DNA of 64,000 nucleotides from Pseudodesulfovibrio profundus. Lineage in GTDB: Bacteria; Desulfobacterota; Desulfovibrionia; Desulfovibrionales; Desulfovibrionaceae. Both the position numbers and the translations under genes were made by a program. Positions 32,488-63,435 of the stretch are shown here, in pieces; positions within the stretch are counted from its first letter, which is position 1; the number at the start of each line of letters is the position of its first letter. The stretch is from assembly GCF_900217235.1 (NCBI RefSeq), contig NZ_LT907975.1, positions 434,001 through 498,000 of the forward strand, written 5' to 3'. Below the pieces are notes generated by a model. The model was not told the origin of the DNA. It did not search any database and saw only the letters and a list, made by a program, of their open reading frames with translations.

Positions 32488-33276
32488 ATGGGGCACGTCA
32501 GACTTGGGAGCCTTCCAAGATCGAGGGCATGGAAAGAGGTGGTCGGCCTGATCACGGCCGGTGCCGACGTGTCCCAGATCGCAAACGCCACAATACGGGC
32601 TGCTGACAAGGCCTTCTCATTTGTGCTCAGCGATGAGGGGTTTACTGAGGCGGTATGGCTGATGACCCAGCTTGCCATTGCTGCCAAGAAGGACAACTTC
32701 AACGATCACCTGCAGTCGGTTGGCATCAATCTGCCACAGGACACCTCATTGCCCGACGTTGCCGCCGCTGTTGCAGAGGCAATGGATCGGAAGCTCGAGT
32801 CCAACGGTAGCCGCTCTGACTTGGGTGAGATGTCGCAGCGGGCCTTGGTTGGAGCATTGGTCGAACACATCTCTCCCAAGTTGCCCTCCTTGTTTACGCC
32901 AGACGCCAGCGACGTTCAGGCCGCATTGGCGTCGCTCGGGAAAAAACGGGAGTTCGGCGAGTTGTCCCGCACGTTCTTCGCCAAGCTGACCAACGAGAGC
33001 ATGAACTATTTCCTGTCAAAAACGCTGGCGACCCATCTGGGCGAAGGCCAGCGCTTTGCCACCATGAATGAAATGGGACAATTCGAGAAAGCCCTGACCA
33101 CGCACTGCAAAGAAGCATCCCTGATCGTCGAACAGTTTTCGGCGGATTGGTTTTCCAAGCACAAATACGAAGAAGGCGGTGATATCTCCCGGGAGTCGTC
33201 CAACGGCTTCGCCTCCTATGCGCTGAAGAAAATGAAGGACGAATTGAAAGAAGGAGCGCGAGCCGATGCAAGATAA
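32488..33276 (+). CDS. Unknown protein paired with the QueC-like protein
   Basis: 262 residues, AAGGAG upstream of ATG 32488. Predominantly helical and charged; no membrane segment, signal or recognisable catalytic motif. Features seen: DVAAAVAEAMDRKLES, a central acidic/helical region, and a Lys-rich C-terminus. Its last four codons overlap the start of the QueC-like gene, so the two proteins are made in coupled amounts and probably work together. In the Qat defence system a QueC-like QatC also has unknown-function partners; whether this is a QatB relative cannot be judged by eye. Confidence 0.65.
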   Translation: MGHVRLGSLPRSRAWKEVVGLITAGADVSQIANATIRAADKAFSFVLSDEGFTEAVWLMTQLAIAAKKDNFNDHLQSVGINLPQDTSLPDVAAAVAEAMDRKLESNGSRSDLGEMSQRALVGALVEHISPKLPSLFTPDASDVQAALASLGKKREFGELSRTFFAKLTNESMNYFLSKTLATHLGEGQRFATMNEMGQFEKALTTHCKEASLIVEQFSADWFSKHKYEEGGDISRESSNGFASYALKKMKDELKEGARADAR

Positions 33277-35368
33277 GCGTTACATCATCTGCGGAAACGC
33301 ACCGACCAGCGGAATCGAGGAAAACCCGGATCGGGATTTGCGCCTGCGGTTGTGGGGCAAGGATGGGCCGGACAAGATCACCCTGCGCATCGAAGACATC
33401 CACAAAAAGATGAGCAAGGACGTGCCGGATTCCTTCCAGGATCTGCTCGAAATTGCCACCTACGTGTACAGCGCCGACCAGGCTATTCCCCGTGGGGCCG
33501 ATGACGTTGATTCCTTTGGTCATGGTTGGCGGAGAAATCTGCATTTCATCATTCCGGTTCGGAACCCGGATTTCTGGAATGGTGAGGAGATTCAGCAGGC
33601 CCTGTGCTCGACGCTTGGGTTCTTGTCTGATGACAGCTATCACTTCGAATTCACCAAGCTGACAGAGGCTCAGGCATTCCAGGGCTATCTGGACTTCAAC
33701 GATGACGGGCGTCTTCTCGGTTATCCGGAGCAGGTGGTGATGTTTTCAGGCGGGCTGGATTCGCTGGCCGGAGCTATCGACGAGGTGTTGAACGAAAAGC
33801 ACCGGGTCGTTCTGGTGACCCACAAGTCAACCCCGAAGCTCAACAAGCGCCACCGCCGCCTGGAAAAGATGATCGCCGACAAGGCCGGTGAAAACGCTCC
33901 CCTTCACATCGGAGTTCGCGTCAACAAGAACAAGGGGCTGAACTACGAGTACACCCAGCGGAGCCGCTCCTTCCTCTATGTGTCCATCGGGGCGACCATC
34001 GCAAAAATGATCAACCTGAAGAGCGTCCGATTCTACGAGAACGGCGTCATCAGTCTGAATCTGCCGGTCTGCGCCCAGGTCGTCGGCGGCCGAGCAACGC
34101 GCACCACCCATCCCAGGGTAATCCGAGGCTTCCAGGAAATCATCAGTATGGTGGCTGGCGAACCATTCACCATTGAAAATCCCTACATCTGGAAAACCAA
34201 GGCTGACGTCGTCGGGGTCATCACCAAAGCCGGATGCCAGGAGATGATCGCGGCATCGACCACCTGCACGCACACCTGGGAGATGACCAATCACCATACC
34301 CACTGCGGCACCTGCTCGCAGTGCATCGACCGGCGCTTTGCCGTGATCGCAGCCAAGGCCGATCAGTATGACCCTGTCGATGCGTACAAAGCCGACATCT
34401 TCACCCAAAGCCGAAGCAAGGACGAGGACAAGATCATGGCGGCCGCGTACCTGGAACGTGCCAACCAGGTCCGTGATCAGGATGACATCACCCAGTTTAT
34501 CGCTCGATTCAGCGAGGTGAGTCGGGTCTTCCGCTACCTGAATGGGAACCCCGGAAGCGTGGCCCAGAAGGTCTATGACCTTTACAAGCGCCACGCCAAG
34601 GAGGTCTGCGATGCGATGGACACCATGGTCGGCCGCAACATCACGGCCATCCGCCAGCGCACCTTGCCGGGAGACTGCTTGCTTCGGACGGTCTATGAAT
34701 CGGGATCGGTGATCTCAGTCCCCGCCATTCCGGTCGAGCAGAAGCAGCCGGACAACTATTTCAGGAAGCGCGGGGGTGTCTGGGCCGCACGCTTTAACGG
34801 CAACGCCGAGGTGCTCGTGACGGGTGTCGACAAAGGAGCCGAGTACATCAACTTCCTCCTGGCGAGGCCCAACAAGGAAACCTCGGTCTACGAGATCGTC
34901 TGCGGGTTTGCCATCGATAGCTGCAACGCGGTCCTGAACTCCAATGAAACCGACGAAGGTTTTCAGGTCACCCAGGGGGTTCCGTTGGGTGATACCGGCT
35001 TCGTTGCCGACCGCAAGGCCGTCGAGCAATACCGGGAGACGGCTCACGAGCTTCTCCGAGAGATTGAAGAAGCCCGGGCAGAAAACAACGATGCCGAAAT
35101 CCAGCGGCTTGAGGACGAAATGACCCAGATCACAGCCGCAATCAACGAGGCGGTTGGTCTGGGTGGAAAACTCCGGAAATCCAACGACAAACGGAAGAAC
35201 ATCCGCGACGCCTTCCGGAACGCCGTGAACCGGGCTATCAAGTATCTGGAGAAGTACGATAAGCCGCTGGCTGCCCACTTGAAGGAGTCCATCAAGTGCG
35301 GCAACGAACCGGTCTACCGGACCGAAGAGGAGATCGTTTGGGAGGTCCGCCCGATAGTCAACGAATGA
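33266..35368 (+). CDS. Large QueC-like PP-loop ATPase (7-deazaguanine synthase fold), possible defence protein
   Basis: 700 residues; canonical QueC is about 230. The N-terminal 150 residues are not QueC. The PP-loop SGGLDS is at 161-166, and the zinc-binding set with the QueC spacing is Cys334 plus Cys347, Cys350 and Cys353 in HCGTCSQCIDRR. A further 340 residues include a substrate-like domain and a coiled coil (about 595-650). QueC converts a carboxylate to preQ0 nitrile with ATP; oversized QueC-like proteins occur in antiphage systems (QatC, Cap9 of type IV CBASS). No queD, queE, folE or tgt is nearby, so phage DNA modification by the queuosine pathway is unlikely from this locus alone. 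Confidence 0.8.
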   Translation: MQDKRYIICGNAPTSGIEENPDRDLRLRLWGKDGPDKITLRIEDIHKKMSKDVPDSFQDLLEIATYVYSADQAIPRGADDVDSFGHGWRRNLHFIIPVRNPDFWNGEEIQQALCSTLGFLSDDSYHFEFTKLTEAQAFQGYLDFNDDGRLLGYPEQVVMFSGGLDSLAGAIDEVLNEKHRVVLVTHKSTPKLNKRHRRLEKMIADKAGENAPLHIGVRVNKNKGLNYEYTQRSRSFLYVSIGATIAKMINLKSVRFYENGVISLNLPVCAQVVGGRATRTTHPRVIRGFQEIISMVAGEPFTIENPYIWKTKADVVGVITKAGCQEMIAASTTCTHTWEMTNHHTHCGTCSQCIDRRFAVIAAKADQYDPVDAYKADIFTQSRSKDEDKIMAAAYLERANQVRDQDDITQFIARFSEVSRVFRYLNGNPGSVAQKVYDLYKRHAKEVCDAMDTMVGRNITAIRQRTLPGDCLLRTVYESGSVISVPAIPVEQKQPDNYFRKRGGVWAARFNGNAEVLVTGVDKGAEYINFLLARPNKETSVYEIVCGFAIDSCNAVLNSNETDEGFQVTQGVPLGDTGFVADRKAVEQYRETAHELLREIEEARAENNDAEIQRLEDEMTQITAAINEAVGLGGKLRKSNDKRKNIRDAFRNAVNRAIKYLEKYDKPLAAHLKESIKCGNEPVYRTEEEIVWEVRPIVNE

Positions 35369-38124: not shown

Positions 38125-38895
38125 ATGCTTCCCAAGACCAAAAGCAAACCCAAACACACGCTCTCGGACCTCACCGCCCTGGTGTACGGCCCGAGCAAGA
38201 TCGGCAAGAGCACCTGGTGCTCCAAGGCCAATGACGCACTGTTCCTGGCGACCGAGCCGGGTCTGAACGCCCTGGAGGTGTTCCAGACCCCGATCACCTG
38301 CTGGGACGACCTTCTGCAGGCCTGCGCCGAAATCGCCGAGGGCAAGCACGAGTTCAAGACCATCGTCGTCGACACGGTGGATAACGCCTACAAGATGTGC
38401 TCGGACTACGTCTGCAAGAAATTCAAGATCGAGCACGAATCCGACCTGGGCTACGGCAAGGGCTACGCGCTGATCAACAACGAGTTCCAGCGCGTCATCA
38501 ACAAGCTCGCCTTCCTGCCCTATGGGTTGATCCTGATCTCCCACTCCCAGGAACGGGACATCGAGACCCGGACCGGCAAACACACCCGCATCGTGCCGAC
38601 GCTGCCGGAAAAGGCGCGGAAGCTGGTTACCGGGCTGGTGGACCTGATTCTGTTCTGCGACCTGGACATGAAAACCGGCGAGGACGGCAAGCCGGTCTGG
38701 CAGCGCGTGATGCGCACCAAGCCCAGTCCCAACTACGACGCCGGTGACCGCACCGGCCGACTCCCCGAAGTCATCCCCCTTGATTTTATGAGCTTCATAA
38801 AAGCGTTCAACAGCACGGCAACCGTAGCTGCGGCGAGTGCCGCACGGTCGAAGCCGGAGCCGACCGCGAGTGCGGCGGCGAAACCTCAACAGTAA
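38125..38895 (+). CDS. RecA-like ATPase, Sak4-type phage annealing protein
   Basis: 256 residues, with Walker A GPSKIGKST at residues 22-30 and Walker B TIVVDTVDN. The pattern (AAA_24 family) is that of Sak4 single-strand annealing proteins of phages, which pair homologous DNA together with a phage ssDNA-binding protein. A disordered Ala/Pro-rich tail ends the protein. The neighbours support the role: nuclease before it, DUF669 protein after it. Confidence 0.85.
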   Translation: MLPKTKSKPKHTLSDLTALVYGPSKIGKSTWCSKANDALFLATEPGLNALEVFQTPITCWDDLLQACAEIAEGKHEFKTIVVDTVDNAYKMCSDYVCKKFKIEHESDLGYGKGYALINNEFQRVINKLAFLPYGLILISHSQERDIETRTGKHTRIVPTLPEKARKLVTGLVDLILFCDLDMKTGEDGKPVWQRVMRTKPSPNYDAGDRTGRLPEVIPLDFMSFIKAFNSTATVAAASAARSKPEPTASAAAKPQQ

Positions 38896-39381: not shown

Positions 39382-39863
39382 TGATGGACCGGATCACCGT
39401 TGTCATCGATACCCGCGAACAGGAGCCCTACAGCTTCGATGCCGACAAGGTTTCGGCGGTCCGTAAGGCGCTGCCAGCCGGTGACTACTCACTGGTCGGT
39501 CTTGAAGACCGGGTGGCGGTGGAGCGCAAATCCATGACGGATTTCGTTTCCACCGTCATCCGTGGGCGCAAGCGGTTCCACCGCGAGCTGCAAAAGCTCT
39601 CCGCCTTCGAGGCTGCCTGTGTGGTTGTCGAGTGCAATTTCCGCGATCTGGTCGATGGCCGATACCGCAGCGATGCCCACCCGCATGCGCTGATCGGAAC
39701 GGTCGCCTCCATCGTCGTCGACTTCGGTGTTCCCGTCTACTTCTGCTCGGATCGGCAGGCCGCCTGCCGTTTTGTCGAGGAGTTTTTGACACGTTTTCAC
39801 CGGAGGATCGCGAAATGCCAAAAAGAAATGAGAGTACCCCGGCGCGACTCCGGGGAAGAATAG
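39381..39863 (+). CDS. ERCC4-domain nuclease
   Basis: 160 residues. The ERCC4/XPF nuclease signature is visible: Asp in VVIDTREQEPY and the VERKSMTDFVSTVIRGRKRF block with Glu-Arg-Lys. Members cut branched or flap DNA. It overlaps the helicase gene by 49 bp in another frame, and the DUF669 gene by one base, so it belongs to the same operon. A second ATG directly follows the first. Confidence 0.85.
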   Translation: MMDRITVVIDTREQEPYSFDADKVSAVRKALPAGDYSLVGLEDRVAVERKSMTDFVSTVIRGRKRFHRELQKLSAFEAACVVVECNFRDLVDGRYRSDAHPHALIGTVASIVVDFGVPVYFCSDRQAACRFVEEFLTRFHRRIAKCQKEMRVPRRDSGEE

Positions 39864-42043
39864 AGCGCGTCTACTATGCCGGACCGAAGTTTTCCGCTGG
39901 CCGTCTAATCACCCCAACCGGGGAAGAGGTTCAGTTCGCGGGCAACCTGTTCGCCCGAGAGAATCAGCCTGTGGTTCTGCTCGGGACGTGGTCCACCCAT
40001 CCCAAGTACGGCCGCCAGTTCAAGGTTGATGGTATGGAGCACGACCTTGAGCTCGATCCGGAGGGTTTGGTCCACTATCTGGCCAACCATCCGGAGATCA
40101 AAGGCATTGGTCCGGCCAAGGCCAGGTTGATCGTTGAGACGTTCGGCGATGCATTTGAAGAGACCCTCCTGAAGGACCCTGAGCGCATCACGCTCGCAGC
40201 CCGCCTGCCCAAGGATTCTGCGCATCGTCTTCGTGACGAATGGCTGAAAAACCGCAGCGTCAACACCGTCATGGCCTGGCTATCGGCCTTTGGCTTGACC
40301 CACCATCAGGTCACCACCCTCGTTGAAAAACTCGGCGGCAACTGCCTCGATGTCCTGAAGGAAGACCCTTACATCCTCATTCGGGAGATCCGGGGATTCG
40401 GCTTCAAGAAGGTCGACAAGATCGCCCGTAAGCTGGGCACCCCAAAGGACCACACTCCCCGTATCCGGGCCGGGTTGAATTTCTGTGTTCGGGAAGCCCT
40501 GGACAATGGCCACTGTTGGAACGAATACGAGGATCTGGTCGACCAGGCCAATCTGCTGCTGGTTATGGATGCCCTGGACAGCCGGGTCCGTGTCGAGAGC
40601 GCCCTTGATGCACTTATCGACGAACACGCGCTTGCCTGTGATTCGCACGGCGGGCGCTTCGTCGTCGCTCTGCCGGAGATCGTCCGCATGGAGCGGGAGC
40701 TGGCTTCGCTGTTCGGCCAGGCCGAAACGCCCAACCCTCATTTCCATTCCGTCAAGAAACTCGACGCCCTGATTCGACGCTGCGCGGCAACGCTGAACGA
40801 GAAGCAGCTCGACGCAGTCCGCTCGGCCCTCACGCACAGCATCTGTCTGATCTCGGGGGGAGCCGGTTCGGGCAAGAGCTACACCATTTCGGTCATCAAC
40901 ACCATCTGCGAGGAGAGCGATCTGGAGGTCGTGCTCGCCGCGCCGACCGGTAAGGCGGCCAAGCGCCTGGAGGAAGTCAGCGGTCGCAGCGGCACCACCA
41001 TCCACCGCCTGCTCGGTTATGACGGCAAGGGCTTCTCGCGCAGCAAGGAGAACCCCATCGATGCCGACGTCCTGGTGGTCGACGAGTTTTCGATGGTCGA
41101 CGTGCCGCTGGCCTGGCACCTGTTCGAGGCGGTCGACCTGTCGCGGACCACGGTGCTGCTGGTCGGAGACCACAACCAGCTTCCGCCGGTGGGACCAGGG
41201 AACATCCTGCGCGATCTGATCCAGACACGCGTCATCCCCACGGTCATCCTCGACAAGGTCGTGCGCCAGGCTGGCGTCCTCAAGGAGAACTGCACCTCCG
41301 TTCTCAAGGGCGAGGTGCGCAAGACCAGCGAGGCGTCGGTGGGCGGATGCCGGGATTGGTATCTGGTGGATCAGTTCACCGACCCGATGGCGGCACGCTC
41401 GTTCCTGCTGGAGTTGTTTCAGGAGCGGCTCGATGCCCTGGGTTTCGACATCATAAAGGACGTGCAGGTGCTGACGCCGACCCACAAGGGGCCGCTCGGC
41501 ACCAAGGAATTGAACGAGGAACTGCAGCGGCTCATCCAGCGCAAACTCTGGAACACCGAGGTGCCGCCGGTCGCCATGGGCCGCCGCGCCCCGTTTCTCA
41601 AGCACGACAAGGTGATCCAGACCCGGAACAACTACGACCTGAACGTGATGAATGGTGCCATCGGCTATGTGGTCGATGTCCTCGCAAACGGCACCCTGGT
41701 CATCGACTTCGACGGCATGCCGGTGGAGCTGGCAAAGGGTTCGCCCGACCTGCAGGACCTGCAGCTCGCCTATGCGCTCACCATCCACAAAACCCAGGGT
41801 TCCGAATTCCCCTGCGCCGTGGTGGTGGTTCACAAGGCGCATTCCTTCATGCACCACCGCAATCTGCTCTACACCGGGGTGACTCGTGCCCGGCGCACCG
41901 CCATTGTCCTGGGTGACCATTGGGGCATCCAGAACTGCGCCAAGCGTTGCCAGGAGGATGACCGCCGGACCTTTCTGCCCCTGTTTCTGGACGCCGCCCA
42001 GCACGCGGATGCCGATTTCGCCCGTGTCGCGGAGGCCGAATGA
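39815..42043 (+). CDS. RecD-like SF1 helicase
   Basis: 742 residues from ATG 39815, which has GGAGGA upstream and family-like N-terminal OB region (RLRGRIERVYYAGPKFSAGRLIT). Helix-hairpin-helix segment GIGPAKARLIVETFG, then helicase motifs: Walker A GGAGSGKSYT (about 346-356), DEFSMVDVPLAW (motif II), GDHNQLPPVGPGNILRD (III), TIHKTQGSEFPCAVVV (V) and NLLYTGVTRARR (VI). This is the RecD2 class of 5'-3' helicases. Likely acts in phage replication or recombination. Confidence 0.92.
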   Translation: MPKRNESTPARLRGRIERVYYAGPKFSAGRLITPTGEEVQFAGNLFARENQPVVLLGTWSTHPKYGRQFKVDGMEHDLELDPEGLVHYLANHPEIKGIGPAKARLIVETFGDAFEETLLKDPERITLAARLPKDSAHRLRDEWLKNRSVNTVMAWLSAFGLTHHQVTTLVEKLGGNCLDVLKEDPYILIREIRGFGFKKVDKIARKLGTPKDHTPRIRAGLNFCVREALDNGHCWNEYEDLVDQANLLLVMDALDSRVRVESALDALIDEHALACDSHGGRFVVALPEIVRMERELASLFGQAETPNPHFHSVKKLDALIRRCAATLNEKQLDAVRSALTHSICLISGGAGSGKSYTISVINTICEESDLEVVLAAPTGKAAKRLEEVSGRSGTTIHRLLGYDGKGFSRSKENPIDADVLVVDEFSMVDVPLAWHLFEAVDLSRTTVLLVGDHNQLPPVGPGNILRDLIQTRVIPTVILDKVVRQAGVLKENCTSVLKGEVRKTSEASVGGCRDWYLVDQFTDPMAARSFLLELFQERLDALGFDIIKDVQVLTPTHKGPLGTKELNEELQRLIQRKLWNTEVPPVAMGRRAPFLKHDKVIQTRNNYDLNVMNGAIGYVVDVLANGTLVIDFDGMPVELAKGSPDLQDLQLAYALTIHKTQGSEFPCAVVVVHKAHSFMHHRNLLYTGVTRARRTAIVLGDHWGIQNCAKRCQEDDRRTFLPLFLDAAQHADADFARVAEAE

Positions 42044-45000
42044 GTATGGGCGGAACGGATAACGTCAGGGAGTATTACCGGCTCGTCACCGAGATGGACA
42101 TCGGTGACGTGGTCCGGGAACTCCTGCCGGGACGGATCACCCAGGAGACCGGCCAGCGCTTGATGTGCGACTGCCCCAACCATCAGAGCCAGTCGCGCCT
42201 GTCGCTGCACGTGATGCTCGATAAGCAGGGCTGGTACTGCTTCGGCTGCGGAGTCGGCGGTGATGTGCTGCAGCTCGTGGAGTTCATTCAGACGGGCTCG
42301 GTCACCGCCGGGCAATCCGGTCCGATGCCGGACAGCCACCGTCAGGCCCGGGACTATCTCGCCAAGAAGGCGGGCTTGCCGCCGCTGTCGCGCTATGGCC
42401 TCAGCCAGGAGCGTCTCGCCCAGACGGAGGCCGACCGTGCCTTCGAACTGCGGGTCAAGGACGCGCTGACCTCGCTGGCCAGGCTTTACCACGCCAGACT
42501 CAAAGAGTCGCCGGAGGTCCTCGACTGGCTGAAATCCAAATACGCCCTGAGCGAGGAGACCATCGACGATCTCCTGATCGGCTACGCGGACAACGCGTCC
42601 GGCGCGGTCGCCCAACTGACCGGGGGTGAGGACGGTTTTTCCAAGCGGGAGCTCGCCGCGACCGGCGCTTTCCGTCCCACCAGCCAGGACGGCCTGACGC
42701 CATTTTTCGAGCGCCGCATCGTCTTTCCCTACTGGAGCCGTGGCCGGGTAGTGTTCATGATCGGCCGCAAGACGCCGTGGACCCCGGACGTGGGCTGGGA
42801 GCAAGGGAAATACAAGAAACTGCCGGTTCATGACGAGCACCAGCGGCCCTACGTCGCAGACTTCATCAACAACGCGCTGCTGTTCAACGAGGACTGTCTG
42901 CTGGCCCGGCCCGGCAAGGTGATCATCACCGAGGGGGTGACCGATTGCCTGGCGCTGATGCAACTGGGCCTGCCAACTGTATCGCCGGTCACCGTCCGCA
43001 TCCGGGCAGCCGATTGGGAGCGCCTGATCCCCAAGCTGCGCGGCGTCGAAACCGTCTACATCTGCCAGGACAACGAGCTCTCCCAGGCCGGTCTCAAGGG
43101 GGCGCTGCAAACCGCCCGCACCCTGGCCGAACACAAGATCGACACTCGCCTGGTGACGCTGCCCTTGTCGGAGACACAGCTCTCGGCCCGGCAGGAGCTG
43201 GCCGAACGCTTCGGCCTGACGGCGAGCGTGGGGCCGAAGGAACTGGCCAAGCTGCTGGCGGGACGTCCAGCCGAAGAAATCCAGTCAGCCGAGGCGCTTC
43301 TCGCCACCGCCAAGATCGACGTCAACGATTACATTGCCGCCGGGCATACCCGGGAGGATTTCGAACGCCTGCTCGCCGAAGCCAGCACGCCCATCGAGTT
43401 CGGCGTGCGCTCGCTACCCGAGGGCGCTGAAGAGGAGGAACGCAACCGTCTGCTCGAACCGATCCTGGGGGAGATTTCCGAGCAGTCGCCGCTGGAACAG
43501 GCCCGCCTGCTGAAGCTGGTGCAGGAGCGCATCGGTGGTGGCGTCTCGATGGCTACCCTGAAAGAGCAAATCCGCGCCATCCAGAAGGACCGCAAGGTCG
43601 AGTTCCGCAACGAAAAGAAAAAGGCCAAGCGGATGTCCGGCGCGATGCCCGGATCGTGCCGCGCCCGGGTCGACGAGGTGCTGATCGACACGGAGCTGGA
43701 TAACGGAGCACCTGATTACACCCTGGCCGCCGAGGCCGCCTACGACTGGTTCACCTCCAACGGTGCCCAGTTCTTTCATACCCTGCAGGGCGAACCGTTC
43801 ATGTATTTCGACAACGCCATCTACTGGATGGATTCACCGGACCGGGGCCGCAAACGCCATTACGCGGCCATGCTCTACAAGCACACGGGCATGGTGCCGA
43901 CCTCCAACGGCGGACGGACCTTTTTCGAGGTACTGCCCAGCCTGGCGATGATCCGTGGCCAGGTGCGCGACCATTTTTCCTGGCTGCACACCGATGTGGC
44001 TTCCTACACCGTCTATTTCAATCTGAACAATCCGGAGCACGAGATCGCCAAGATCACCCCGGACGAGATTCAGATCATGAAGAACGGCGGCAACGAGGAC
44101 GGCATCATCCTGGACGGCTCGCGGAAGATGAAGCCGCTGAAATTCCTGCCCGACGCCGACCTCGAAGAGGCGGACCGGCTCCTGGTCGACCTGCTGGTGG
44201 GTAACATGACCTGTCCGCAGGGGGATCGCTTTCTCATCCTTTCCTGGCTCTCCTGTTTCCTGCTGATCGACTTCGCCGGGACGCGGCCCATGACCCGTTT
44301 CGAGGGCTCGGCTGGATCGGGCAAGACCACCGCCAGCAAGATCACGTCGACGCTGCTTTTCGGCGAGCCTCAGCACAAGAAGGCCACCGACGCGGCAAAC
44401 TATACCGATGGCTCGCAGAACCCGCTCATCGTCCTCGACAACATCGAGGTCAAGCAGATGACCGAGGATCTGACCACCTTCATGCTGACCAGCATCACCG
44501 GCATCGCCAAGGAGAAACGCAAGAGCGGCACCGACAGCGAGACCATCACCGAGCGGACCAAGTGCCTGCTGAACACCACCGGCATCGAGCCGCTGTGCGG
44601 GGAGCTTTCGGAGATCCTGTCGAGGTCCTTCGTCATCAACTTCGACCTCGCCAACCAGGCCAGCGACTGCTTTCTGGAATCGGAGGTCATCTCCGCCATC
44701 CAGCAGAACCGGGATCTGATCATCTCGGCCATCATGAAGCGGACAAGCCATGTGCTGGCGATGATACGGGACGGAGCCCAGAAGCAGGTCATGCGCCTGC
44801 TGCACCGGACCATGCCGACCCATGGCAAACGCCGGTGCAACGACTATCTGAGCCTGATGTACCTGATGATGCTGGCCGGGTCCGAGGAACACGAGGTGAC
44901 CACCGGACTCGAGGATCTGAGCCCGCTGTTCATCGAGCAGATCCATTCCATCAACGACACCAGCCAGGAGATGGCGCGGGAGTCGAACCCCATCGCAACG

Positions 45001-45354
45001 GCGCTGGCATCGCTCTTCCATGCCTACCGAAACGCGGTGGAGCTGGACGAGAAGGCCCGCTACGGCGAGGACGACCGGGCAAACCACGTAGTGGGGTTCA
45101 TCGAACGCTACCAGGTGAGGTTCGAGAACGAGAACACCATGGAGCCAGTGTCAGCGGGACGGCTGCTCGCGGCGCTGCGCAGGGTCGGCCGGGAATTCAA
45201 CCTCGAGTTCGAATACAAGAAGCCCGCCCAGCTCGGTCGGCGCATCAGCAACGACCTGGACGTCATCCGGGACGCCGGGTTCGACATCGACCGGCAGCGC
45301 AATGCCCACACCAAGAATTTCGAGTATTGGATCAGCGCGAACAGGGGAAAATGA
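42040..45354 (+). CDS. Phage primase-helicase fusion
   Basis: 1,104 residues, overlapping the helicase gene as ATGA. An N-terminal CHC2-type zinc finger (Cys45, His48, Cys67, Cys70, as CPNH ... CFGC) is followed by a TOPRIM-like region (KVIITEGVTDCLALMQLG, YICQDNELSQAGLKG), a charged linker, and a C-terminal ATPase with Walker A EGSAGSGKTTASK (about 755) and Walker B-like NPLIVLDNIEV. It would lay primers and unwind DNA at the phage origin. The following 1.2 kb hold a repeat cluster that may be that origin. Confidence 0.88.
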   Translation: MSMGGTDNVREYYRLVTEMDIGDVVRELLPGRITQETGQRLMCDCPNHQSQSRLSLHVMLDKQGWYCFGCGVGGDVLQLVEFIQTGSVTAGQSGPMPDSHRQARDYLAKKAGLPPLSRYGLSQERLAQTEADRAFELRVKDALTSLARLYHARLKESPEVLDWLKSKYALSEETIDDLLIGYADNASGAVAQLTGGEDGFSKRELAATGAFRPTSQDGLTPFFERRIVFPYWSRGRVVFMIGRKTPWTPDVGWEQGKYKKLPVHDEHQRPYVADFINNALLFNEDCLLARPGKVIITEGVTDCLALMQLGLPTVSPVTVRIRAADWERLIPKLRGVETVYICQDNELSQAGLKGALQTARTLAEHKIDTRLVTLPLSETQLSARQELAERFGLTASVGPKELAKLLAGRPAEEIQSAEALLATAKIDVNDYIAAGHTREDFERLLAEASTPIEFGVRSLPEGAEEEERNRLLEPILGEISEQSPLEQARLLKLVQERIGGGVSMATLKEQIRAIQKDRKVEFRNEKKKAKRMSGAMPGSCRARVDEVLIDTELDNGAPDYTLAAEAAYDWFTSNGAQFFHTLQGEPFMYFDNAIYWMDSPDRGRKRHYAAMLYKHTGMVPTSNGGRTFFEVLPSLAMIRGQVRDHFSWLHTDVASYTVYFNLNNPEHEIAKITPDEIQIMKNGGNEDGIILDGSRKMKPLKFLPDADLEEADRLLVDLLVGNMTCPQGDRFLILSWLSCFLLIDFAGTRPMTRFEGSAGSGKTTASKITSTLLFGEPQHKKATDAANYTDGSQNPLIVLDNIEVKQMTEDLTTFMLTSITGIAKEKRKSGTDSETITERTKCLLNTTGIEPLCGELSEILSRSFVINFDLANQASDCFLESEVISAIQQNRDLIISAIMKRTSHVLAMIRDGAQKQVMRLLHRTMPTHGKRRCNDYLSLMYLMMLAGSEEHEVTTGLEDLSPLFIEQIHSINDTSQEMARESNPIATALASLFHAYRNAVELDEKARYGEDDRANHVVGFIERYQVRFENENTMEPVSAGRLLAALRRVGREFNLEFEYKKPAQLGRRISNDLDVIRDAGFDIDRQRNAHTKNFEYWISANRGK

Positions 45355-45369
45355 AGGAGAACTGGAGAG

Positions 45370-45696
45370 TTATGCCTGTAATAGACGACGTTGCAGCAAC
45401 GTCTGCATATCACGGCGGCCGTCGGCAATCACCATGACATAAACATTTTCGGCCATGACTCGATAGATGATGCGGTAGGGTTTGAAAAATATCTCACGGT
45501 ACTCGCGAAGCCCGATGGCCAGCAGTTCTTTTGGATAGGCTCCTCGCTCCGGATTCTCGGAGAGGCTCGAAAAGGCCTTCTCTATTTGATCGAGAACGTA
45601 ATCCGCTTTTCCCGGCGCATCGTGGGATGCAATGTAGTCGTACAACTCCTCCAAATCCCGTGACGCATCGTCGGTCAGAAATAACTGGAAGGTCAT
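45370..45696 (-). CDS. ParE/RelE-family toxin
   Basis: 108 residues. Pattern of the ParE branch: FQLFLTDDASRDLEELYDYIAS, ENPERGAYPKELLAIGLREYREIFFKPYRIIYRV and VYVMVIADGRRDMQTLLQRRLL. ParE toxins poison gyrase and RelE toxins cut mRNA; which applies here is uncertain. Its start overlaps the antitoxin stop, the classic antitoxin-first order. It runs opposite to the replication operon and would act as an addiction module stabilising the prophage. Confidence 0.88.
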   Translation of the reverse strand: MTFQLFLTDDASRDLEELYDYIASHDAPGKADYVLDQIEKAFSSLSENPERGAYPKELLAIGLREYREIFFKPYRIIYRVMAENVYVMVIADGRRDMQTLLQRRLLQA

Positions 45697-45971
45697 CAGC
45701 GACTCTTGCTCCGGTCGCGAAGCCGCTGGATGACATCACCGGCGGGCTGGACTTTGCCTTCCTCGATCTGACGCGAGCCTAGCGCCAGGATCTTCAGAAG
45801 GGCCATGGTCTCCTGGGTTTGCTCATAGCTTTCGATGTCCTGCATCACGACCTTGGCTTCGCCATTCTGAGTGATGACCAGGGGTTCACCTTGCCCTGAC
45901 ATGTTGCGCACGATTTCTGCGGCATGGGCTTTCAGGTAACTAATCGGTTTGATTTGGCTTGATAGCTTCAT
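45696..45971 (-). CDS. Phd/YefM-family antitoxin
   Basis: 91 residues from ATG 45971; a closer ATG (45977) sits only 2 bp behind GGAGG, so the second gives the normal spacing. Contains the Phd/YefM DNA-binding fold (KPISYLKAHAAEIVRNMSGQGEPLVITQNGEAKVVMQDIESYEQ) and a C-terminal toxin-binding tail. It neutralises the toxin encoded next and usually represses its own promoter. Confidence 0.9.
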   Translation of the reverse strand: MKLSSQIKPISYLKAHAAEIVRNMSGQGEPLVITQNGEAKVVMQDIESYEQTQETMALLKILALGSRQIEEGKVQPAGDVIQRLRDRSKSR

Positions 45972-46097
45972 ATCCATCCTCCTTTACATGACTAAATATA
46001 GTCCGAAAACGGGTCAACTGTCAATCTGAAACGCTCCGAGTCGCCACCGTGGTGGCTTGGAAAATCATCCAGGACGCTCTCGGGCGTCCTTTTCTTT

Positions 46098-46449
46098 TGC
46101 GGTGGTGCGGTGAACACCGCTGTCCTTTGCGGTGGATGACCACCGCACGCCAAAACATTGCCAGACAAGGCTTTCATGGCCTTTGCGGTGGTTGCGGTGG
46201 TAAATCCAGAGGTCTCACCCCCTATGGGCTGAAATATTTTTTTGATCCACCGATCCGGCATTCCTCGCCAGAGAAATTCCGGCCAAGCGTGAGAGACATT
46301 CCCCAAATACCACCGCAACCACCGCACTCTATCTTCTCTTTCTTCATAACTATCGATAAACAATAAATAAACAACGCACCACCCCCTGCGGTGGGACGAG
46401 AAAATCTTCCACCGCACGACCACCGCAGCCACCGCATATATCCACCGCA
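46098..46449. repeat. Cluster of TGCGGTGG / CCACCGCA repeats
   Basis: Plus-orientation copies at 46098, 46128, 46184, 46193 and 46387; minus-orientation copies at 46140, 46310, 46319, 46409, 46420, 46429 and 46442, plus a degenerate one at 46106. Two more minus copies fall inside the next gene near 46697. Confidence 0.85.
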
Positions 46450-46619: not shown

Positions 46620-47390
46620 ATGAGCCTTCTGAAAACCATGATCAAGCACACCGCCGGTGGGCAGGAAGCCTCGGCAGGATGTGAAACCCCATCATTACCA
46701 CCGCAACCACCGCAGCCCGCCATCTATGTCTCCACCGGGCTCGACATCCACGACATCGAGGACGCCCGCGATTGGCCTGAAGACAGGGAGATCGACGGCA
46801 CGCTGTGTCGCCGTCTGTCGCCTGAATACTTTGCCTGGCTACGTTCCCGCATGGTCACCGCCCAAGCCGCGCACAAGGCCGGAAAGCTCCCCGAGGATGC
46901 CTGGAATACGCTGCGGCAGCGATTCAACGCCCTGCAGGAGCTAGCCATCCGGGAGTTCGGCAAGGAACGCCTGCAGGAGGTCCTGCAGTCCTTTTCCTCA
47001 AAGAACTACCAGCCACCCGCGCTTCGTCCCGAGTCCCAGAAGAAACCCGTCGAAGTTCCCAGAAAGGACTGGATTTATCCCGGCAACCAAGCTTGGAAAT
47101 GTAAGCAGCCGGTGACTTCCCAGGCTGTCGCCAAGGTCGACGCCATCCGTGAGGAGGCCATGGCCAAGGGCTGGTCCGAGGCACGCCTCTATCAGAACCA
47201 GGGCCGGTTTCGGTTTCCCTGCGGCGAGGACTACGGCCTGGTCTGCTTCGTCGATGGCGATCAGGAGATTGGCGACGTCACCGAACGTTCTATCGAAATT
47301 ATCCACGGGCCGAAGTCCGGGCGTCCCAGCACGCTGCGGTTCTACAACCCGGACGTGCCGCAGCCGTGGATGAAGAAAGTGGAGGATTGA
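46620..47390 (+). CDS. Phage hypothetical protein, 256 residues
   Basis: ATG 46620 behind a GGAG site. The sequence has a low-complexity PPQPPQP stretch near the start, a central helical part (EYFAWLRSRMVTAQAAHKAGKLPEDAWNTLRQRF) and a C-terminal portion (FPCGEDYGLVCFVDGDQEIGDVTERSIEI). No known domain recognised. It heads a short unit behind motif copy b with the HTH gene 3 bp away. Confidence 0.72.
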   Translation: MSLLKTMIKHTAGGQEASAGCETPSLPPQPPQPAIYVSTGLDIHDIEDARDWPEDREIDGTLCRRLSPEYFAWLRSRMVTAQAAHKAGKLPEDAWNTLRQRFNALQELAIREFGKERLQEVLQSFSSKNYQPPALRPESQKKPVEVPRKDWIYPGNQAWKCKQPVTSQAVAKVDAIREEAMAKGWSEARLYQNQGRFRFPCGEDYGLVCFVDGDQEIGDVTERSIEIIHGPKSGRPSTLRFYNPDVPQPWMKKVED

Positions 47391-47393
47391 GCC

Positions 47394-47672
47394 GTGAAGA
47401 AAAAGAAAAGCTACGCCAACGCCAAGGATGTCCTGCCAGAGGAGCTCTTCGAGCAGATCCAGAAGCACTACACCGGGATTCTCTGGGTCCCGGCACCGAG
47501 CCGGTTTTACCAGGAGCGCCGCGATCTGGTGCTTGCCCTTCACCTGCAGGGGATCAGCAGCCAGGAGATCTCCAACCTCGCCGGAGTGACCACCCGCCGG
47601 GTCAATCAGATCATCGCCGCCGAACGAAAACAGGATCGGGACCGACAGTTGGCCGTCGCTTCCGGTAAGTAA
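47394..47672 (+). CDS. Small HTH protein
   Basis: 92 residues from GTG 47394. The second half is a helix-turn-helix like sigma region 4 or Mor-type activators (LVLALHLQGISSQEISNLAGVTTRRVNQIIAAERK). It may be a late-gene regulator. Its stop codon TAA is the last three bases of motif copy c, so gene and motif overlap. Confidence 0.75.
   Translation: MKKKKSYANAKDVLPEELFEQIQKHYTGILWVPAPSRFYQERRDLVLALHLQGISSQEISNLAGVTTRRVNQIIAAERKQDRDRQLAVASGK
47641..47672 (+). promoter_or_regulatory. Phage motif copy c: ACCGAC-N14-TCCGGTAAGTAA
   Basis: As promoter: CCGACA-N18-TAAGTA, 92 bp before the terminase-small-like gene. It overlaps the end of the HTH gene. A GGCGGGAG/CTCCCGCC hairpin follows. Confidence 0.75.
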
Positions 47673-50775: not shown

Positions 50776-51050
50776 AAGAGATCCTTCAAGAAAACAGCGA
50801 TGCCGTCCGCCAGGCCGGTGAGGCCCTGGTTGAAATCGGCACCGAACTGGCGGCGGGACGGATCGAGAACGCTCTCGGCCGTTTGGAAGCGGCTCAGCAG
50901 CAGTACCGGGCCTGGGCGGAGTTGGACCAGGCCATCATCGACATTCAGGAGGCTGTCCACGACCGGAAGAACACCCTGGCCGTGCAGCAGATCCTGACGG
51001 AACTGGTGGGCACCATCCTCGGCAGCGCCTTGAGGACGGGAATGCACTGA
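50772..51050 (+). CDS. Phage hypothetical protein, 92 residues, helical
   Basis: ATG 50772 overlaps the lipoprotein stop (ATGA). Amphipathic helices throughout (AVRQAGEALVEIGTELAAGRIENALGRLEAAQQQYRAWAELDQAI), no motifs. Lies directly before the terminase large gene with a one-base overlap. Function unknown. Confidence 0.7.
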   Translation: MKEILQENSDAVRQAGEALVEIGTELAAGRIENALGRLEAAQQQYRAWAELDQAIIDIQEAVHDRKNTLAVQQILTELVGTILGSALRTGMH

Positions 51051-52573
51051 TGGCGGTAACCGACAAGGAGCGCAAACTTGCGGCGACCCTGAGCGATCCC
51101 GTGTTGTGGGGGCAAGCCTACCTCTACAACCGGGATGGCTCAGGCCGCGACTACTGGCCGCATCAGGTGGAGGACCTGCGCTGCCCGGCCAAGAACATCA
51201 TCCACCTCGACGGACGGGACGTGGGTAAGTCCATCGTGCTCTCGACCGACGCGCTCCATTACGCTTTCACCACCCGGGGCGGTCAGGGCCTCATCGCGGC
51301 TCCGCACCAGGGGCACCTCGACACCATCATCGAGGAGATCGAGTTCCAGCTCGACAGCAACCCGGATCTGATGAACAGCATCGCTCTGACCAAGTACGGC
51401 AAGCCAAAGATCCACCGCAAACCCTATTTCCGGCTGGAGTTCACCAACGGTTCGGTGCTCTATTTCCGCCCGGCCGGGGCCTATGGTGACGCCTTCCGGT
51501 CCCTGCATGTTGGTCGTATCTGGGTTGATGAAGGAGCCTGGCTGACCGAACGGGCCTGGAAGGCGCTGCGCCAGTGCCTCAAGGCCGGGGGGACGCTACG
51601 CATCTACTCAACGCCCAACGGCCTGCGCGACACCACCTATTACCGGCTCACCTCATCGGAGCAGTTCCATGTGTTCCGCTGGCCGTCCTGGCTCAACCCT
51701 TTGTGGACCGAGGATCGCGAGGCCGAACTGCTGGAGTTCTACGGCGGCCGCGACAGTTCCGGTTGGCAGCACGAGGTGGCCGGTGAACACGGCAAGCCCT
51801 CCTATGGGGCCTTCAATGTCGAGCAGTTCAACCTCTGTCGGCAGGAACTGCTGGAGTACCAGAAGATCGTCATCACCGATTCCGAAATGCGCGACTGCGA
51901 CACCGAGGAAGCGGCCCATGACCGTCTGGAGATGCTGCTCAACCTCACGCCCCGCAGCGGACAGTTCTGGGTTGGCGGCGACCTGGGCTACACCAACGAT
52001 CCCACCGAGATCGTCGTATTCCAGGAGATGGAGATCGGCGAGCGGACGCTGCTGAAGATGATCCTGCGTGTGCATCTCGAACACGTTTCCTATCCGCACA
52101 TCGCCCAGATCATCGCGCTGCTGGAGCGGTACTACACCCCGGCGGGCATCGGCGTGGACAACGGCGGCAACGGCCTATCGGTGGTCCAGGAGCTGCTCAC
52201 CCTGGACAAGTACAAGGGGCTTGAGTTGGAAGGCAGGCTCAAAGGATACGACTTCGGTGGTATGACCCGGCTGGCGGTGCGGGACGGTAAGGAAATCAAG
52301 AAGCGGACCAAGGAGCTGATGACCAGCCTCATCAACGGAGCCCTGCAGCGCAAGCAGGTCATTTTCCCCTCGGACGACCTGGAAGTGGAAGACCAGTTCA
52401 CCACCCACACCTACACCCTGCGGGACGGCAAGATCATCTATTCCAAGGGGAACGACCACATCATCGACGCGGTCCGCTGTGCCATGCTGATCCGGGAAGA
52501 AGGCAACCTCGACCCGGTCGGCGAAGAGGTGGTTTCGCTCAAGCCGGTCCTCACCAATCCGGTCTTCATCTGA
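51050..52573 (+). CDS. Phage terminase large subunit
   Basis: 507 residues. ATPase: Walker A-like LDGRDVGKSIVLS (about residues 55-67) and Walker B GRIWVDEGAWL (about 158-168). The nuclease half has GGDLGYTNDPTEIVVF (about 306-321), GVDNGGNG (about 366) and HIIDAVRCAM (about 470). It cuts the concatemer and powers DNA packaging into proheads with the portal. A hairpin follows its stop. Confidence 0.9.
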   Translation: MAVTDKERKLAATLSDPVLWGQAYLYNRDGSGRDYWPHQVEDLRCPAKNIIHLDGRDVGKSIVLSTDALHYAFTTRGGQGLIAAPHQGHLDTIIEEIEFQLDSNPDLMNSIALTKYGKPKIHRKPYFRLEFTNGSVLYFRPAGAYGDAFRSLHVGRIWVDEGAWLTERAWKALRQCLKAGGTLRIYSTPNGLRDTTYYRLTSSEQFHVFRWPSWLNPLWTEDREAELLEFYGGRDSSGWQHEVAGEHGKPSYGAFNVEQFNLCRQELLEYQKIVITDSEMRDCDTEEAAHDRLEMLLNLTPRSGQFWVGGDLGYTNDPTEIVVFQEMEIGERTLLKMILRVHLEHVSYPHIAQIIALLERYYTPAGIGVDNGGNGLSVVQELLTLDKYKGLELEGRLKGYDFGGMTRLAVRDGKEIKKRTKELMTSLINGALQRKQVIFPSDDLEVEDQFTTHTYTLRDGKIIYSKGNDHIIDAVRCAMLIREEGNLDPVGEEVVSLKPVLTNPVFI

Positions 52574-52662: not shown

Positions 52663-52736
52663 CCGGCATCGAGCCGGGTTCGGCCCACACGGGCCGGATG
52701 TGCGGCTGTCATGGCCGAAACTACCGAGAGGATCAC

Positions 52737-54245
52737 GTGGAAAGTACCGCCCATCAGGACGAACAACCCGAAAGCCTGGACACCACCGGCTTTGTCATCG
52801 CGCCGCTGGCCGCAGCGGCAGCGCTCGACTCGGCCGCCTTCGCCAAGGTGAACGCCGCCGAAGCGATTCCTGCCACCTGGGAAGAACGCGCCCGCAAGGC
52901 CTGGGAATACTACGTCGAGGAGCCGCTGGTGAAGAACTGCGTCAACTCCTGGCGCACCTTTGCCGTGGGCGACGAGATCAAGATCACCAGCGATGACGAG
53001 AACCTCAAGGAGCAGGCTCTGGAGGCCGCCTGGCGGTTGAACATCACGCAATTCATCAAGGACATGGTTCTTCAGCTCCTGGTGAAAGGTGATGCCATCG
53101 GCTTCAAACGCTTCACCAAGTCCGGCCAGGACATCGAGGAACTGGTCTGCGTCAACCCGGTTTCGGTCAAGGTTAAATACGCCCAGGGCGAACTGATCGA
53201 GGCCCGGCAATTTCCCGAGGACACCCCCGGCGGCGGGGAATCCATTCCGCTGCCCGTCGAACAGGTGGTCCACCTCAAATGGGATGCTCCAGCCTTCTCG
53301 CCCCGGGGCAACTCCCTCGTGCTTCCCGCCTTTCAAGCCATCGAACTGCTGCGCGACTACCGCCGGGCCGAACAGGCCATCGCCAAGCGCTGGGCCACGC
53401 CGTTCCGCCTGCTCAAGGTGGGCGGCGCGTTCGGCCAGAAGATGGTGATGCCGGACCAGCGGATGCTCGAACAGGTCCGCGACATGGTCAACAAGATGGA
53501 CATGAAAAGCGGCCTGGTGGTCCCGTTCTACGTCAATGTCGAAACCCACGGCACCGATGGTCAGGTCCTCAACGTCGAGGACAAGGTCAAGGAGGTGAAG
53601 GAAGACATCGTGGTGGCCCTGGGTCTGTCACGCTCGCTGGTGACCGGCGACGGCCCGAATTTCGCCACCGCCTCGGTGAGCATGCAGAAGATGATGGTCA
53701 TGATCCGCGAGATCAAACAGGCCGCACGCAAGCTCCTCGACTGGGTGTTCGACGACTGGATGGAGCTGAACGGCCATGGCGACAAGAGCATCCAGTTCAT
53801 CTTCAACGACCTCGACCCCAGCGATGCGGTCGATTTCAAGAAGCTCCTCATCGAACTCTACGACCGCAAGCTCATCAGCCGCTCCAGCCTTCAGCTCAAG
53901 ATGGACCTGGACCCGGACATCGAGGCCGCCAACCGCGAGACCGAACGTAAGCAGATCGACCTGATGGACGAGAAGCAGGTGAAGCCGGTGGTGGATATGG
54001 TCGTCTCCGGCATCCTCAGCGTACCTCGCGCCCGCAAGATGCTCGGGATTCCGGCCGAGGACGATGAACCCACGGCGGAGGCGGCATTGGTCTGGTCAGG
54101 CGACCTGGAGTCCACCGGCATTGCTGCCGTGTGCGACGAGTGCAGCCACTTCATTGCTGACACCAACCACTGCCGGGTTCACAACAGCGAGCGCACCTTC
54201 GACGCCCCGGCCTGTCGTTTCATCGACCGCCGGGAGCCCCGTTGA
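52737..54245 (+). CDS. Phage portal protein
   Basis: 502 residues from GTG 52737, chosen because GAGAGGA precedes it; a further ATG at 52698 is possible. The protein has the portal pattern: VEEPLVKNCVNSWRTFAVG, FIKDMVLQLLVKGDAIGFKRF, VVHLKWDAPAFSPRGNSLVLPAFQAIELL, VALGLSRSLVTGDGPNFATASVSM. Twelve copies form the DNA entry ring. The last 40 residues add a Cys/His cluster (CDECSHFIADTNHCRVH, then Cys), not usual for portals. Overlaps the head gene (TGATG). Confidence 0.88.
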   Translation: MESTAHQDEQPESLDTTGFVIAPLAAAAALDSAAFAKVNAAEAIPATWEERARKAWEYYVEEPLVKNCVNSWRTFAVGDEIKITSDDENLKEQALEAAWRLNITQFIKDMVLQLLVKGDAIGFKRFTKSGQDIEELVCVNPVSVKVKYAQGELIEARQFPEDTPGGGESIPLPVEQVVHLKWDAPAFSPRGNSLVLPAFQAIELLRDYRRAEQAIAKRWATPFRLLKVGGAFGQKMVMPDQRMLEQVRDMVNKMDMKSGLVVPFYVNVETHGTDGQVLNVEDKVKEVKEDIVVALGLSRSLVTGDGPNFATASVSMQKMMVMIREIKQAARKLLDWVFDDWMELNGHGDKSIQFIFNDLDPSDAVDFKKLLIELYDRKLISRSSLQLKMDLDPDIEAANRETERKQIDLMDEKQVKPVVDMVVSGILSVPRARKMLGIPAEDDEPTAEAALVWSGDLESTGIAAVCDECSHFIADTNHCRVHNSERTFDAPACRFIDRREPR

Positions 54246-59725: not shown

Positions 59726-59781
59726 CCGCTGAACGCTCCCCGCAGGTCGCGGAGAGCACAGCAAACTGACCGGAGACGTTG

Positions 59782-62571: not shown

Positions 62572-63435
62572 ATGAAAACCAATCAGTTGAAGATCCATTC
62601 CCAGGAATACATGGAAACCATGGCGCGGCTCATGAGCGAGGCTCTCGAGTCGCCCGAAGGCATGCGGGCGCTTGCCGCCGCCATCGCCGCGCCCATCGAA
62701 CAAGAGATCAAGCGCAAGGAGATCTCCTCGCTGCTGCTCACCAAGCACACGTTGCCCAAGGGCGAACGTCCGGTCTACCAGAAGAAACCGACCGTCAAAG
62801 CCCACTGGATCAGCAAGGACGGCGACGCCCAGGAGCAGGAGGTGGGCAAGGACGAGGTCGAGTTCCCCACCAACCGCATCCACTCCAACCCGATGGTGGA
62901 CGTTTCCGTCCTCAAAAACGGCAACATCGGCACGCTGATGGACATTCAGACCAGCGCCGCCGACGCCATCCGCAAGGAGATGGACCGACGCACCATCTCG
63001 GTGCTTTCCTCGGCCATCCCGGCGGCCAACACCATCGAGGTCACCGGCGACCTGCTCACCGAGGAGGCACTGAACGAGGCCATCTCGATCATCGAGGACC
63101 TGGAGCTGTCGGTGAAGTACATCGTCATGCGCGGCCGCCGTTTCAACGACATGCGTGGCTGGAACCTCGATCCCCAGACCAAGCTCGAGCTGCGCCAGAA
63201 GGGTGTCATCAAGAACTACGGCACCGGCGGCATTCTGTTGACCGCCTCCATGCCGCTGGACGAGATCATCATCGTCCCGGATGAAGAGGTCGGAAAGATG
63301 CCGGTGCGCGAAAACCTGAAGACGGAGTCCATCGATCAGAAGACCCGCTTCAAGACCGGCTGGCTGGTGTGGTCCGAGATCGGTCAAGGAATTACCCGGC
63401 CCGACATCATGGCCAAGGTCAAACTGGTTCCGTAA
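62572..63435 (+). CDS. Major capsid protein (HK97-fold)
   Basis: 287 residues. Position right after protease/scaffold and decoration genes, and the pattern RISVL-type (RRTISVLSSAIPAANTIEVTGD), YIVMRGRRFNDMRGW, LDEIIIVPDEEVGKMPVRENL, KTGWLVWSEIGQGITRPDIMAKVKLVP, fit HK97-like capsid proteins. The N-terminal 90 residues are helical, a possible delta domain. It should be the most abundant protein of the virion. Confidence 0.82.
   Translation: MKTNQLKIHSQEYMETMARLMSEALESPEGMRALAAAIAAPIEQEIKRKEISSLLLTKHTLPKGERPVYQKKPTVKAHWISKDGDAQEQEVGKDEVEFPTNRIHSNPMVDVSVLKNGNIGTLMDIQTSAADAIRKEMDRRTISVLSSAIPAANTIEVTGDLLTEEALNEAISIIEDLELSVKYIVMRGRRFNDMRGWNLDPQTKLELRQKGVIKNYGTGGILLTASMPLDEIIIVPDEEVGKMPVRENLKTESIDQKTRFKTGWLVWSEIGQGITRPDIMAKVKLVP

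What the first reader, a model, noticed from the sequence alone, without database searches (positions are those of the whole stretch)
46098..46449. Iteron-like cluster of TGCGGTGG in a 648-bp noncoding gap: candidate phage origin
At least 12 exact 8-mers in 352 bp, in both orientations and partly in 9-bp-spaced pairs, with an AT-rich window among them, just downstream of the primase-helicase gene. Two more copies are inside the next gene. Repeats at this density next to replication genes suggest an initiator-binding origin; a regulator-binding array is the alternative.
Basis: partly seen in the sequence, partly recalled or inferred. Interest (0 to 1): 0.6.

Follow-up and report, generated by a model that had tools for sequence, protein, structure and literature searches.

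The report
Phage replication origin with matching initiator
A cluster of short DNA repeats in a bacterial virus looks like the place where its DNA copying starts, and across related viruses the repeat word changes together with one small loop of the virus's own primase-helicase, which suggests that this loop reads the word.

Summary
In detail: 12 exact TGCGGTGG copies in 46098-46449 and two more at 46698-46714; 2.7 are expected per 64 kb. Relatives show what it is. An array lies downstream of the homologous primase-helicase gene in 55 of 60 loci examined, but with ten different words. In 28 non-redundant loci it spans 237-362 bp, and in 27 of them the weakest 40 bp within 1 kb lies inside it. 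The word tracks the predicted wing of the protein's C-terminal winged helix: 269 of 273 sixteen-residue windows have a 100%-identical pair of loci with different words; the four exceptions all lie at residues 1077-1104. Near-identical phages that differ in word differ at the wing, and homologous sites changed in concert. Two VapE-type families also peak at the C-terminal wing. Best reading: a replication origin bound by its own initiator, built like P4 crr and satellite-island origins, in temperate phages with their own head genes. Binding and origin activity were not tested.

The parts
42040..45354 (+). DnaG-type primase fused to a P-loop helicase-like part and a C-terminal winged helix; proposed initiator (1104 aa)
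   Evidence: Pfam Zn_ribbon_DnaG and DNAG_N above cut-off; phrog_47 DNA primase, E 5.8e-290; residues
44989..45351 (+). C-terminal winged helix, about residues 984-1104
   Evidence: AlphaFold2 model of residues 980-1104, pLDDT 89.6, pTM 0.84
45223..45252 (+). putative recognition helix, residues 1062-1071
   Evidence: helix 83-92 of the model; function inferred
45280..45327 (+). wing, residues 1081-1096, the stretch that best predicts the repeat word
   Evidence: AUC 0.988, highest of 273 windows; strands 1081-1087 and 1094-1100
45370..45696 (-). ParE-type toxin of the cargo slot
   Evidence: Pfam PF05016, E 6.8e-20
45696..45977 (-). Phd/YefM-type antitoxin of the cargo slot
   Evidence: Pfam PF02604, E 4.3e-17
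46098..46200 (.). left repeat block: sites 46098+, 46128+, 46140-, 46184+, 46193+
46310..46326 (.). inner repeat pair: sites 46310-, 46319-
46330..46369 (.). AT-rich candidate unwinding element
   Evidence: weakest 40 bp of 29000-63500; 7 sites left, 5 right of it
46387..46449 (.). right repeat block: sites 46387+, 46409-, 46420-, 46429-, 46442-
46698..46714 (-). extra repeat pair inside the next gene
   Evidence: also present downstream of the array in close relatives
46620..47390 (+). P0002, protein of unknown function next to the array
   Evidence: open frame; no Pfam or PHROGs match at E 1e-3

Best explanation
The array is the replication origin of a temperate phage. Copies of TGCGGTGG are bound by the C-terminal winged helix of the phage's own primase-helicase, the wing (residues 1081-1096) setting the sequence preference. 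Blocks of sites on both sides of an AT-rich stretch would gather the protein, let its helicase part open the AT-rich DNA and its primase part start synthesis. Shown here: the array, its conservation under selection, its fixed architecture under changing words, the match between word and wing, and a predicted winged helix. Inferred: binding, unwinding, priming and origin function.
For: (1) Array downstream of the homologous gene in 55 of 60 loci (L010, window, and the 58 of 65 loci whose frame reaches a stop), ten words. (2) Architecture constant while the word changes: span 237-362 bp, weakest 40 bp within 1 kb inside the array in 27 of 28 loci, with sites on both sides. (3) 28 loci, 9 words: wing window 1081-1096 has AUC 0.988 (median of 273 windows 0.826); 269 of 273 windows have an identical pair with different words, exceptions only at 1077-1104. 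(4) GTAGAAAG (16 loci) against GCCGAAAG (4): 489 variable primase columns, 5 segregate: 145, 1087, 1088, 1089, 1099. (5) Ten pairs with body (1-850) at least 95% identical but different words all differ at the wing, identity 0.19-0.80; L055/L064 are 96.9% identical, with 18 of 35 differences from residue 1089 on. (6) L015 against L047: of 8 aligned repeat cores 6 carry different words and 2 are relics; spacer identity 0.724 against 0.741 for the same-word pair L015/L017, so one recombination tract cannot explain it. (7) Word changes on trees: body segments 12, wing 8, which is the minimum. (8) Two VapE-type families: best window is the C-terminal wing, AUC 0.993 (18 loci, 7 words) and 0.984 (16 loci, 8 words). 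(9) Sites 5/96 variable columns, spacers 175/334, Fisher p 2e-19. (10) The double site occurs 8 times in the host genome, four in this prophage and four in a second near-copy; reversed control 0.
Against: No binding or replication data. L072 and L074 reach about 5 kb past the gene without an array; L067 has a truncated frame and none; L014 and L044 end within 530 bp. The wing is not a perfect predictor: nearest neighbour by wing has the same word in 23 of 25; L047 and L032 fail. GGTGAAAG is found with three rather different wings. Two positions away from the wing core (145, 1099) also segregate. TerS alone has AUC 0.906 and P0002 0.856, so relatedness explains part of the signal. In VapE-b another window (917-932) reaches 0.976 with only 10 same-word pairs, and in VapE-a other windows also lack an identical different-word pair. 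Sequence comparison with P4 alpha found nothing, and structure matches are weak (best Z 5.1).
Confidence: 0.87

Rival explanations
1. The primase-helicase binds the array, but the array mainly controls replication (copy control, incompatibility or autoregulation), and strands open elsewhere, as P4 has both crr and a separate ori.
For: P4 holds type 1 repeats in crr beside the alpha gene and six more in a separate ori. Every test here shows recognition, not firing.
Against: The weakest DNA of the whole phage part lies inside the array, and this holds across words in 27 of 28 loci. No second cluster of 5 or more copies of any 8-mer exists in the window.
Confidence: 0.08
2. An array of operator sites for a phage regulator: the HTH protein (47394-47672) or P0002.
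For: Both genes lie just downstream; P0002 has 9 columns that separate GTAGAAAG from GCCGAAAG loci.
Against: HTH proteins 96% identical between window and L048 go with different words; HTH nearest neighbours share the word in 13 of 22, P0002 in 18 of 25. The P0002 stretch 156-163 that separates the two groups is the same in the window, which has a third word.
Confidence: 0.03
3. A packaging site read by the small terminase subunit.
For: The array lies about 1.3 kb before the terminase small subunit gene; TerS AUC 0.906.
Against: TerS is 99% identical between window and L048, whose words differ; no TerS column separates the GTAGAAAG and GCCGAAAG loci, 0 of 41 variable in the near set.
Confidence: 0.01
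4. Chance or low-complexity coding remnants.
For: Two of the 14 copies lie in a variable, proline-rich start of P0002.
Against: Density far above shuffles, single-base indels and sites conserved against spacers, arrays at the same place in relatives.
Confidence: 0.01

Closest known systems
Phage P4 alpha protein with crr/ori type 1 repeats
   Same: Toprim-type primase-helicase with a C-terminal winged helix that binds 8-bp repeats (said in PMC4234260, section read in part); in the P4 record ten type 1 repeats lie in a 300-bp crr 45 bp after the alpha stop, in both orientations, some 9 bp apart.
   Different: P4 is a satellite. No sequence similarity to alpha was found. The P4 origin-binding domain 1ka8 is only one of many weak matches (Z 3.7, 76 residues, rmsd 3.9). 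P4 has a second repeat-bearing ori; none was seen here.
Origins of SaPIs and other phage-inducible chromosomal islands (PICIs)
   Same: [quoted passage not shown] Rep's C-terminal domain recognises the origin directly downstream of its gene (PMC7581432, passages).
   Different: PICIs are satellites; this element has terminase, portal and major head genes. [quoted passage not shown]
PLE replicons of Vibrio cholerae
   Same: Initiator DNA-binding domain covaries with the origin, and origin-swapped elements replicate only with the cognate RepA (PMC8263062, passages).
   Different: RepA_N initiator without a primase-helicase, about 30-bp semi-palindromic iterons, satellite element.
Geminivirus Rep and iterons
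   Same: Iterons of conserved layout whose sequence differs between close relatives and pairs with the cognate Rep (PMC12548392, abstract).
   Different: Single-stranded DNA plant viruses, rolling-circle Rep; that paper argues that iteron identity is not essential for replication.
Iteron plasmids (RepE type)
   Same: Winged-helix initiator on direct repeats; Rep/RepE chains head the structural list (8ac8 Z 5.1, 1rep Z 4.5).
   Different: Separate small Rep protein, longer iterons (recalled), no fused primase-helicase.

Membership tests
P4-alpha-type initiator and origin | Toprim/DnaG-type primase domain in the same protein | tested here: met
   Zn_ribbon_DnaG and DNAG_N above cut-off, Toprim_2 just below it
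P4-alpha-type initiator and origin | Helicase part in the same protein | tested here: inconclusive
   GSAGSGKT motif by eye; only AAA_23 at E 0.0086, below cut-off
P4-alpha-type initiator and origin | C-terminal winged helix homologous to 1ka8 | tested here: inconclusive
   Confident model; 1ka8 at Z 3.7 among many winged helices; profile comparison with P4 alpha gives probability 0.2
P4-alpha-type initiator and origin | Short repeats in both orientations close to the gene | tested here: met
P4-alpha-type initiator and origin | Specific binding of the repeats by the protein | not testable with these tools
   only co-variation shown
PICI-type replication origin | Iterons on both sides of an AT-rich region | tested here: met
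PICI-type replication origin | Position immediately 3' of the initiator gene | tested here: met
   21-181 bp after the gene in 31 of 55 loci; 24 loci, the window among them, have a longer slot between
PICI (the element itself) | Satellite without its own capsid and portal genes | tested here: not met
   TerL, portal and major head protein in the window: not a PICI
Either | Autonomous replication of gene plus array | not testable with these tools
   needs an experiment

The most novel reading that the evidence does not exclude
These phages carry an expandable set of mutually exclusive initiator-origin pairs. A few residues at the wing tip of the primase-helicase change the word it reads, and all iterons then follow by concerted change; relic sites of the old word remain. 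Ten words in one family and seven and eight in two VapE-type families would be a natural recognition code, kept diverse by selection such as avoidance of co-resident phages, satellites or origin-directed nucleases.
Probability: 0.35. Interest if true: 0.76.

Novelty: new variant of a known kind. Interest (0 to 1): 0.62.

Why it matters
Origin recognition by primase-helicases is known from satellites such as P4 and SaPIs. Here temperate phages with their own head genes, without a close relative among 50,697 deposited phage records, show the same layout with at least ten words. Pairs of near-identical phages differ in both word and wing, so how a winged helix chooses its DNA word, and how an initiator and ten scattered sites change together, can be tested directly. 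If confirmed, it also gives origins for these phages from sequence alone and a set of possibly orthogonal replicons.

Tried and rejected
Sequence searches of the C-terminal part against solved structures found nothing useful: a single sequence gave 0 matches up to E 10, the profile A2 gave only two nucleoporin coiled-coil matches at E 0.07-0.14. Search of deposited phages: 64 of 50,697 records, all under 60% identity and none covering 80% of the query.

Regulator and packaging readings were tested through HTH, P0002 and TerS and given low odds. Linkage alone was considered, since the wing-coding end lies near the array: rejected because scattered sites changed while spacers did not follow, and because P0002, next to the array on its other side, predicts the word less well.

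One search used a query file that by mistake held three proteins, so several rows described the RecD-like helicase; it was repeated with P0001 alone. Rows not used: L051, L052, L053, L061, L070, L075, L076 (no stop reached); L128, L130, L132, L133 and the 71% copy in G010 were not examined; L127, L129 and L131 (array present) were left out of the counts. In one search, of 52 rows, L077 and L087 had no 7-mer with 4 copies, and L079 and L114 only doubtful ones. The VapE test used 18 and 17 loci of those rows (18 and 16 after removing near-duplicates).

Full report
What is there. The window holds 12 exact TGCGGTGG sites in 46098-46449 and two more at 46698-46714. They form a left block of five, an inner pair, and a right block of five; the weakest 40 bp of the whole phage part, 46330-46369, lies between inner pair and right block. 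The array is under selection as sites, not as a gene: among 12 distinct close copies 5 of 96 site columns vary against 175 of 334 spacer columns, and all 29 gap columns lie outside the sites. In the host genome the double site occurs eight times, four here and four in a second near-identical prophage region; the reversed control gives none.

The setting. The element is a temperate phage with its own head genes: integrase 29546-31132, Sak4-like protein 38125-38895, RecD-like helicase 39632-42043, primase 42040-45354, weak matches to a late activator and a small terminase subunit, large terminase 51050-52573, portal 52698-54245, methyltransferase 59779-62178, major head protein 62572-63435. Between the primase gene and the array lies a ParE/Phd pair.

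Relatives. Scans of viral contigs and of genomes gave 29 and 36 loci. Of these 65, 58 hold the 3' end of the gene; with L010 and the window, 60 were examined. 55 have an array of one of ten words: TGCGGTGG, GTAGAAAG, GCCGAAAG, ACCGAAAG, TGCGAAGG, GGTGAAAG, TGAGAAGG, TGGGAAGG, TGCGGAGG, GGCGGGTG. The five without: L014 and L044 end within 530 bp; L067 has a truncated frame; L072 and L074 have about 5 kb downstream, but no array and no recognisable P0002, HTH or TerS gene. In 28 non-redundant loci the array spans 237-362 bp and in 27 the weakest 40 bp within 1 kb lies inside it, with sites on both sides; L048 is the exception.

Who reads the word. Sixteen-residue windows along the primase were scored for how well their identity predicts a shared word over 378 pairs of 28 loci with 9 words. 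The best is 1081-1096 (AUC 0.988; median 0.826). In 269 of 273 windows some pair is identical yet has different words; the four exceptions all lie at 1077-1104. Controls: P0002 0.856, HTH 0.806, TerS 0.906 for the whole protein. Relatedness clearly carries part of the signal, so close pairs matter more. Between the GTAGAAAG and GCCGAAAG loci (16 and 4) only residues 145, 1087, 1088, 1089 and 1099 separate, out of 489 variable columns; at 1087-1089 it is KRY against N/D, H, and R/K/C. L047 and L048 differ at 29 of 1100 residues and in the word. L055 and L064 are 96.9% identical, 18 of 35 differences from 1089 on. Ten pairs with bodies at least 95% identical but different words all differ at the wing. 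By nearest neighbour the wing predicts the word in 23 of 25 loci, the body in 13 of 25, residues 851-1072 in 20 of 25, P0002 in 18 of 25, HTH in 13 of 22, TerS in 15 of 20. On trees the word changes 12 times on each body segment, 8 on the wing (the minimum), 11 on P0002 (minimum 8), 12 on HTH (minimum 7), 9 on TerS (minimum 7).

Module swap and concerted change. L048 matches the window at 94.6% over the first 2.85 kb of the primase gene, is not aligned from there to 46815, and matches at 96.2% from there to the end of TerS: the C-terminal part and the array differ together. In L015 against L047 the arrays align site by site: of 8 aligned cores 6 carry different words and 2 are shared relics; spacers are 72% identical, about as in the same-word pair L015/L017 (74%).

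Structure. Residues 980-1104 are predicted with confidence (pLDDT 89.6, pTM 0.84) as helices, a putative recognition helix at 1062-1071 and a two-stranded wing at 1081-1100. Matches to solved structures are weak, but iteron Rep proteins (8ac8 Z 5.1, 1rep 4.5), ORC/Cdc6 and MarR winged helices lead, and the P4 origin-binding domain 1ka8 is among them at Z 3.7. At such Z values this shows only a common arrangement.

Further families. More distant viral contigs share the N-terminal primase part with a VapE-like domain behind it (shown by Pfam for L098); many have dense arrays at or near the end of the gene, again with other words. The same window test peaks at the C-terminal wing: 0.993 (18 loci, 7 words) and 0.984 (16 loci, 8 words). 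In the second set only 10 pairs share a word and another window reaches 0.976; in the first set a few other windows also lack an identical different-word pair. In many of the second set the array lies inside the 3' end of the gene.

Comparison with known systems. In phage P4 ten 8-bp type 1 repeats in both orientations sit in crr, 45 bp after the alpha gene, and alpha binds such repeats with a winged helix (PMC4234260, passages and part of one section). [quoted passage not shown] SaPI Rep uses its C-terminal domain on iterons directly downstream of its gene (PMC7581432, passages). PLE initiators covary with their origins (PMC8263062, passages); PMC7145576 was seen in passages and PMC12548392 as abstract. 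So the principle is known; the setting in phages with their own head genes, the number of words and the natural wing differences are what the ten paper searches (listings) did not show. That is no proof that they are unpublished, as only open-licence papers are held.

Verdict. An origin read by its own primase-helicase, confidence 0.87. Not shown: binding, strand opening, replication.

Noticed in passing
45355-46097; L042, L048, L041, L064, L013, L019, L028, L062: The stretch between initiator gene and array is a cargo slot: 400 bp or less in 31 of 55 loci, longer in 24. Of 14 slot frames scanned, 10 matched PADLOC models at E 1e-3 or better: AbiL, AbiE, PDC-S24 (Fic), mad3-like, DrmC-like and a weak ZorE.
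   Followed up: partly
46569, 47662, 52652, 59715 (+): CCGGTAAGTAAC occurs exactly four times, each 46-102 bp before a gene start (P0002, TerS, portal, methyltransferase); 6 matches with up to one mismatch against 0.13 expected. Possibly a late regulatory box.
   Followed up: no
L045, L046, L042, L054 against window 29000-64000: Phages 92-96% identical in their aligned DNA pieces lie in Ectothiorhodospira (Gammaproteobacteria) and in several Desulfobacterota, which suggests a very wide host range. Names of metagenome bins may be wrong; these four are named strains.
   Followed up: partly
G000:C1:564205-570226 (L010): A second prophage region in the same genome carries a 99% identical primase and the same word, so two origins of one specificity share a host.
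   Followed up: partly
33266-35368: Phage gene matching QatC (PADLOC E 1.7e-53) and QueC, perhaps part of a defence system.
   Followed up: no
L105, L109, L112, L117 and others: In one VapE-type group the array lies about 350-440 bp before the stop codon, so the repeats are translated as a poorly conserved tail.
   Followed up: no
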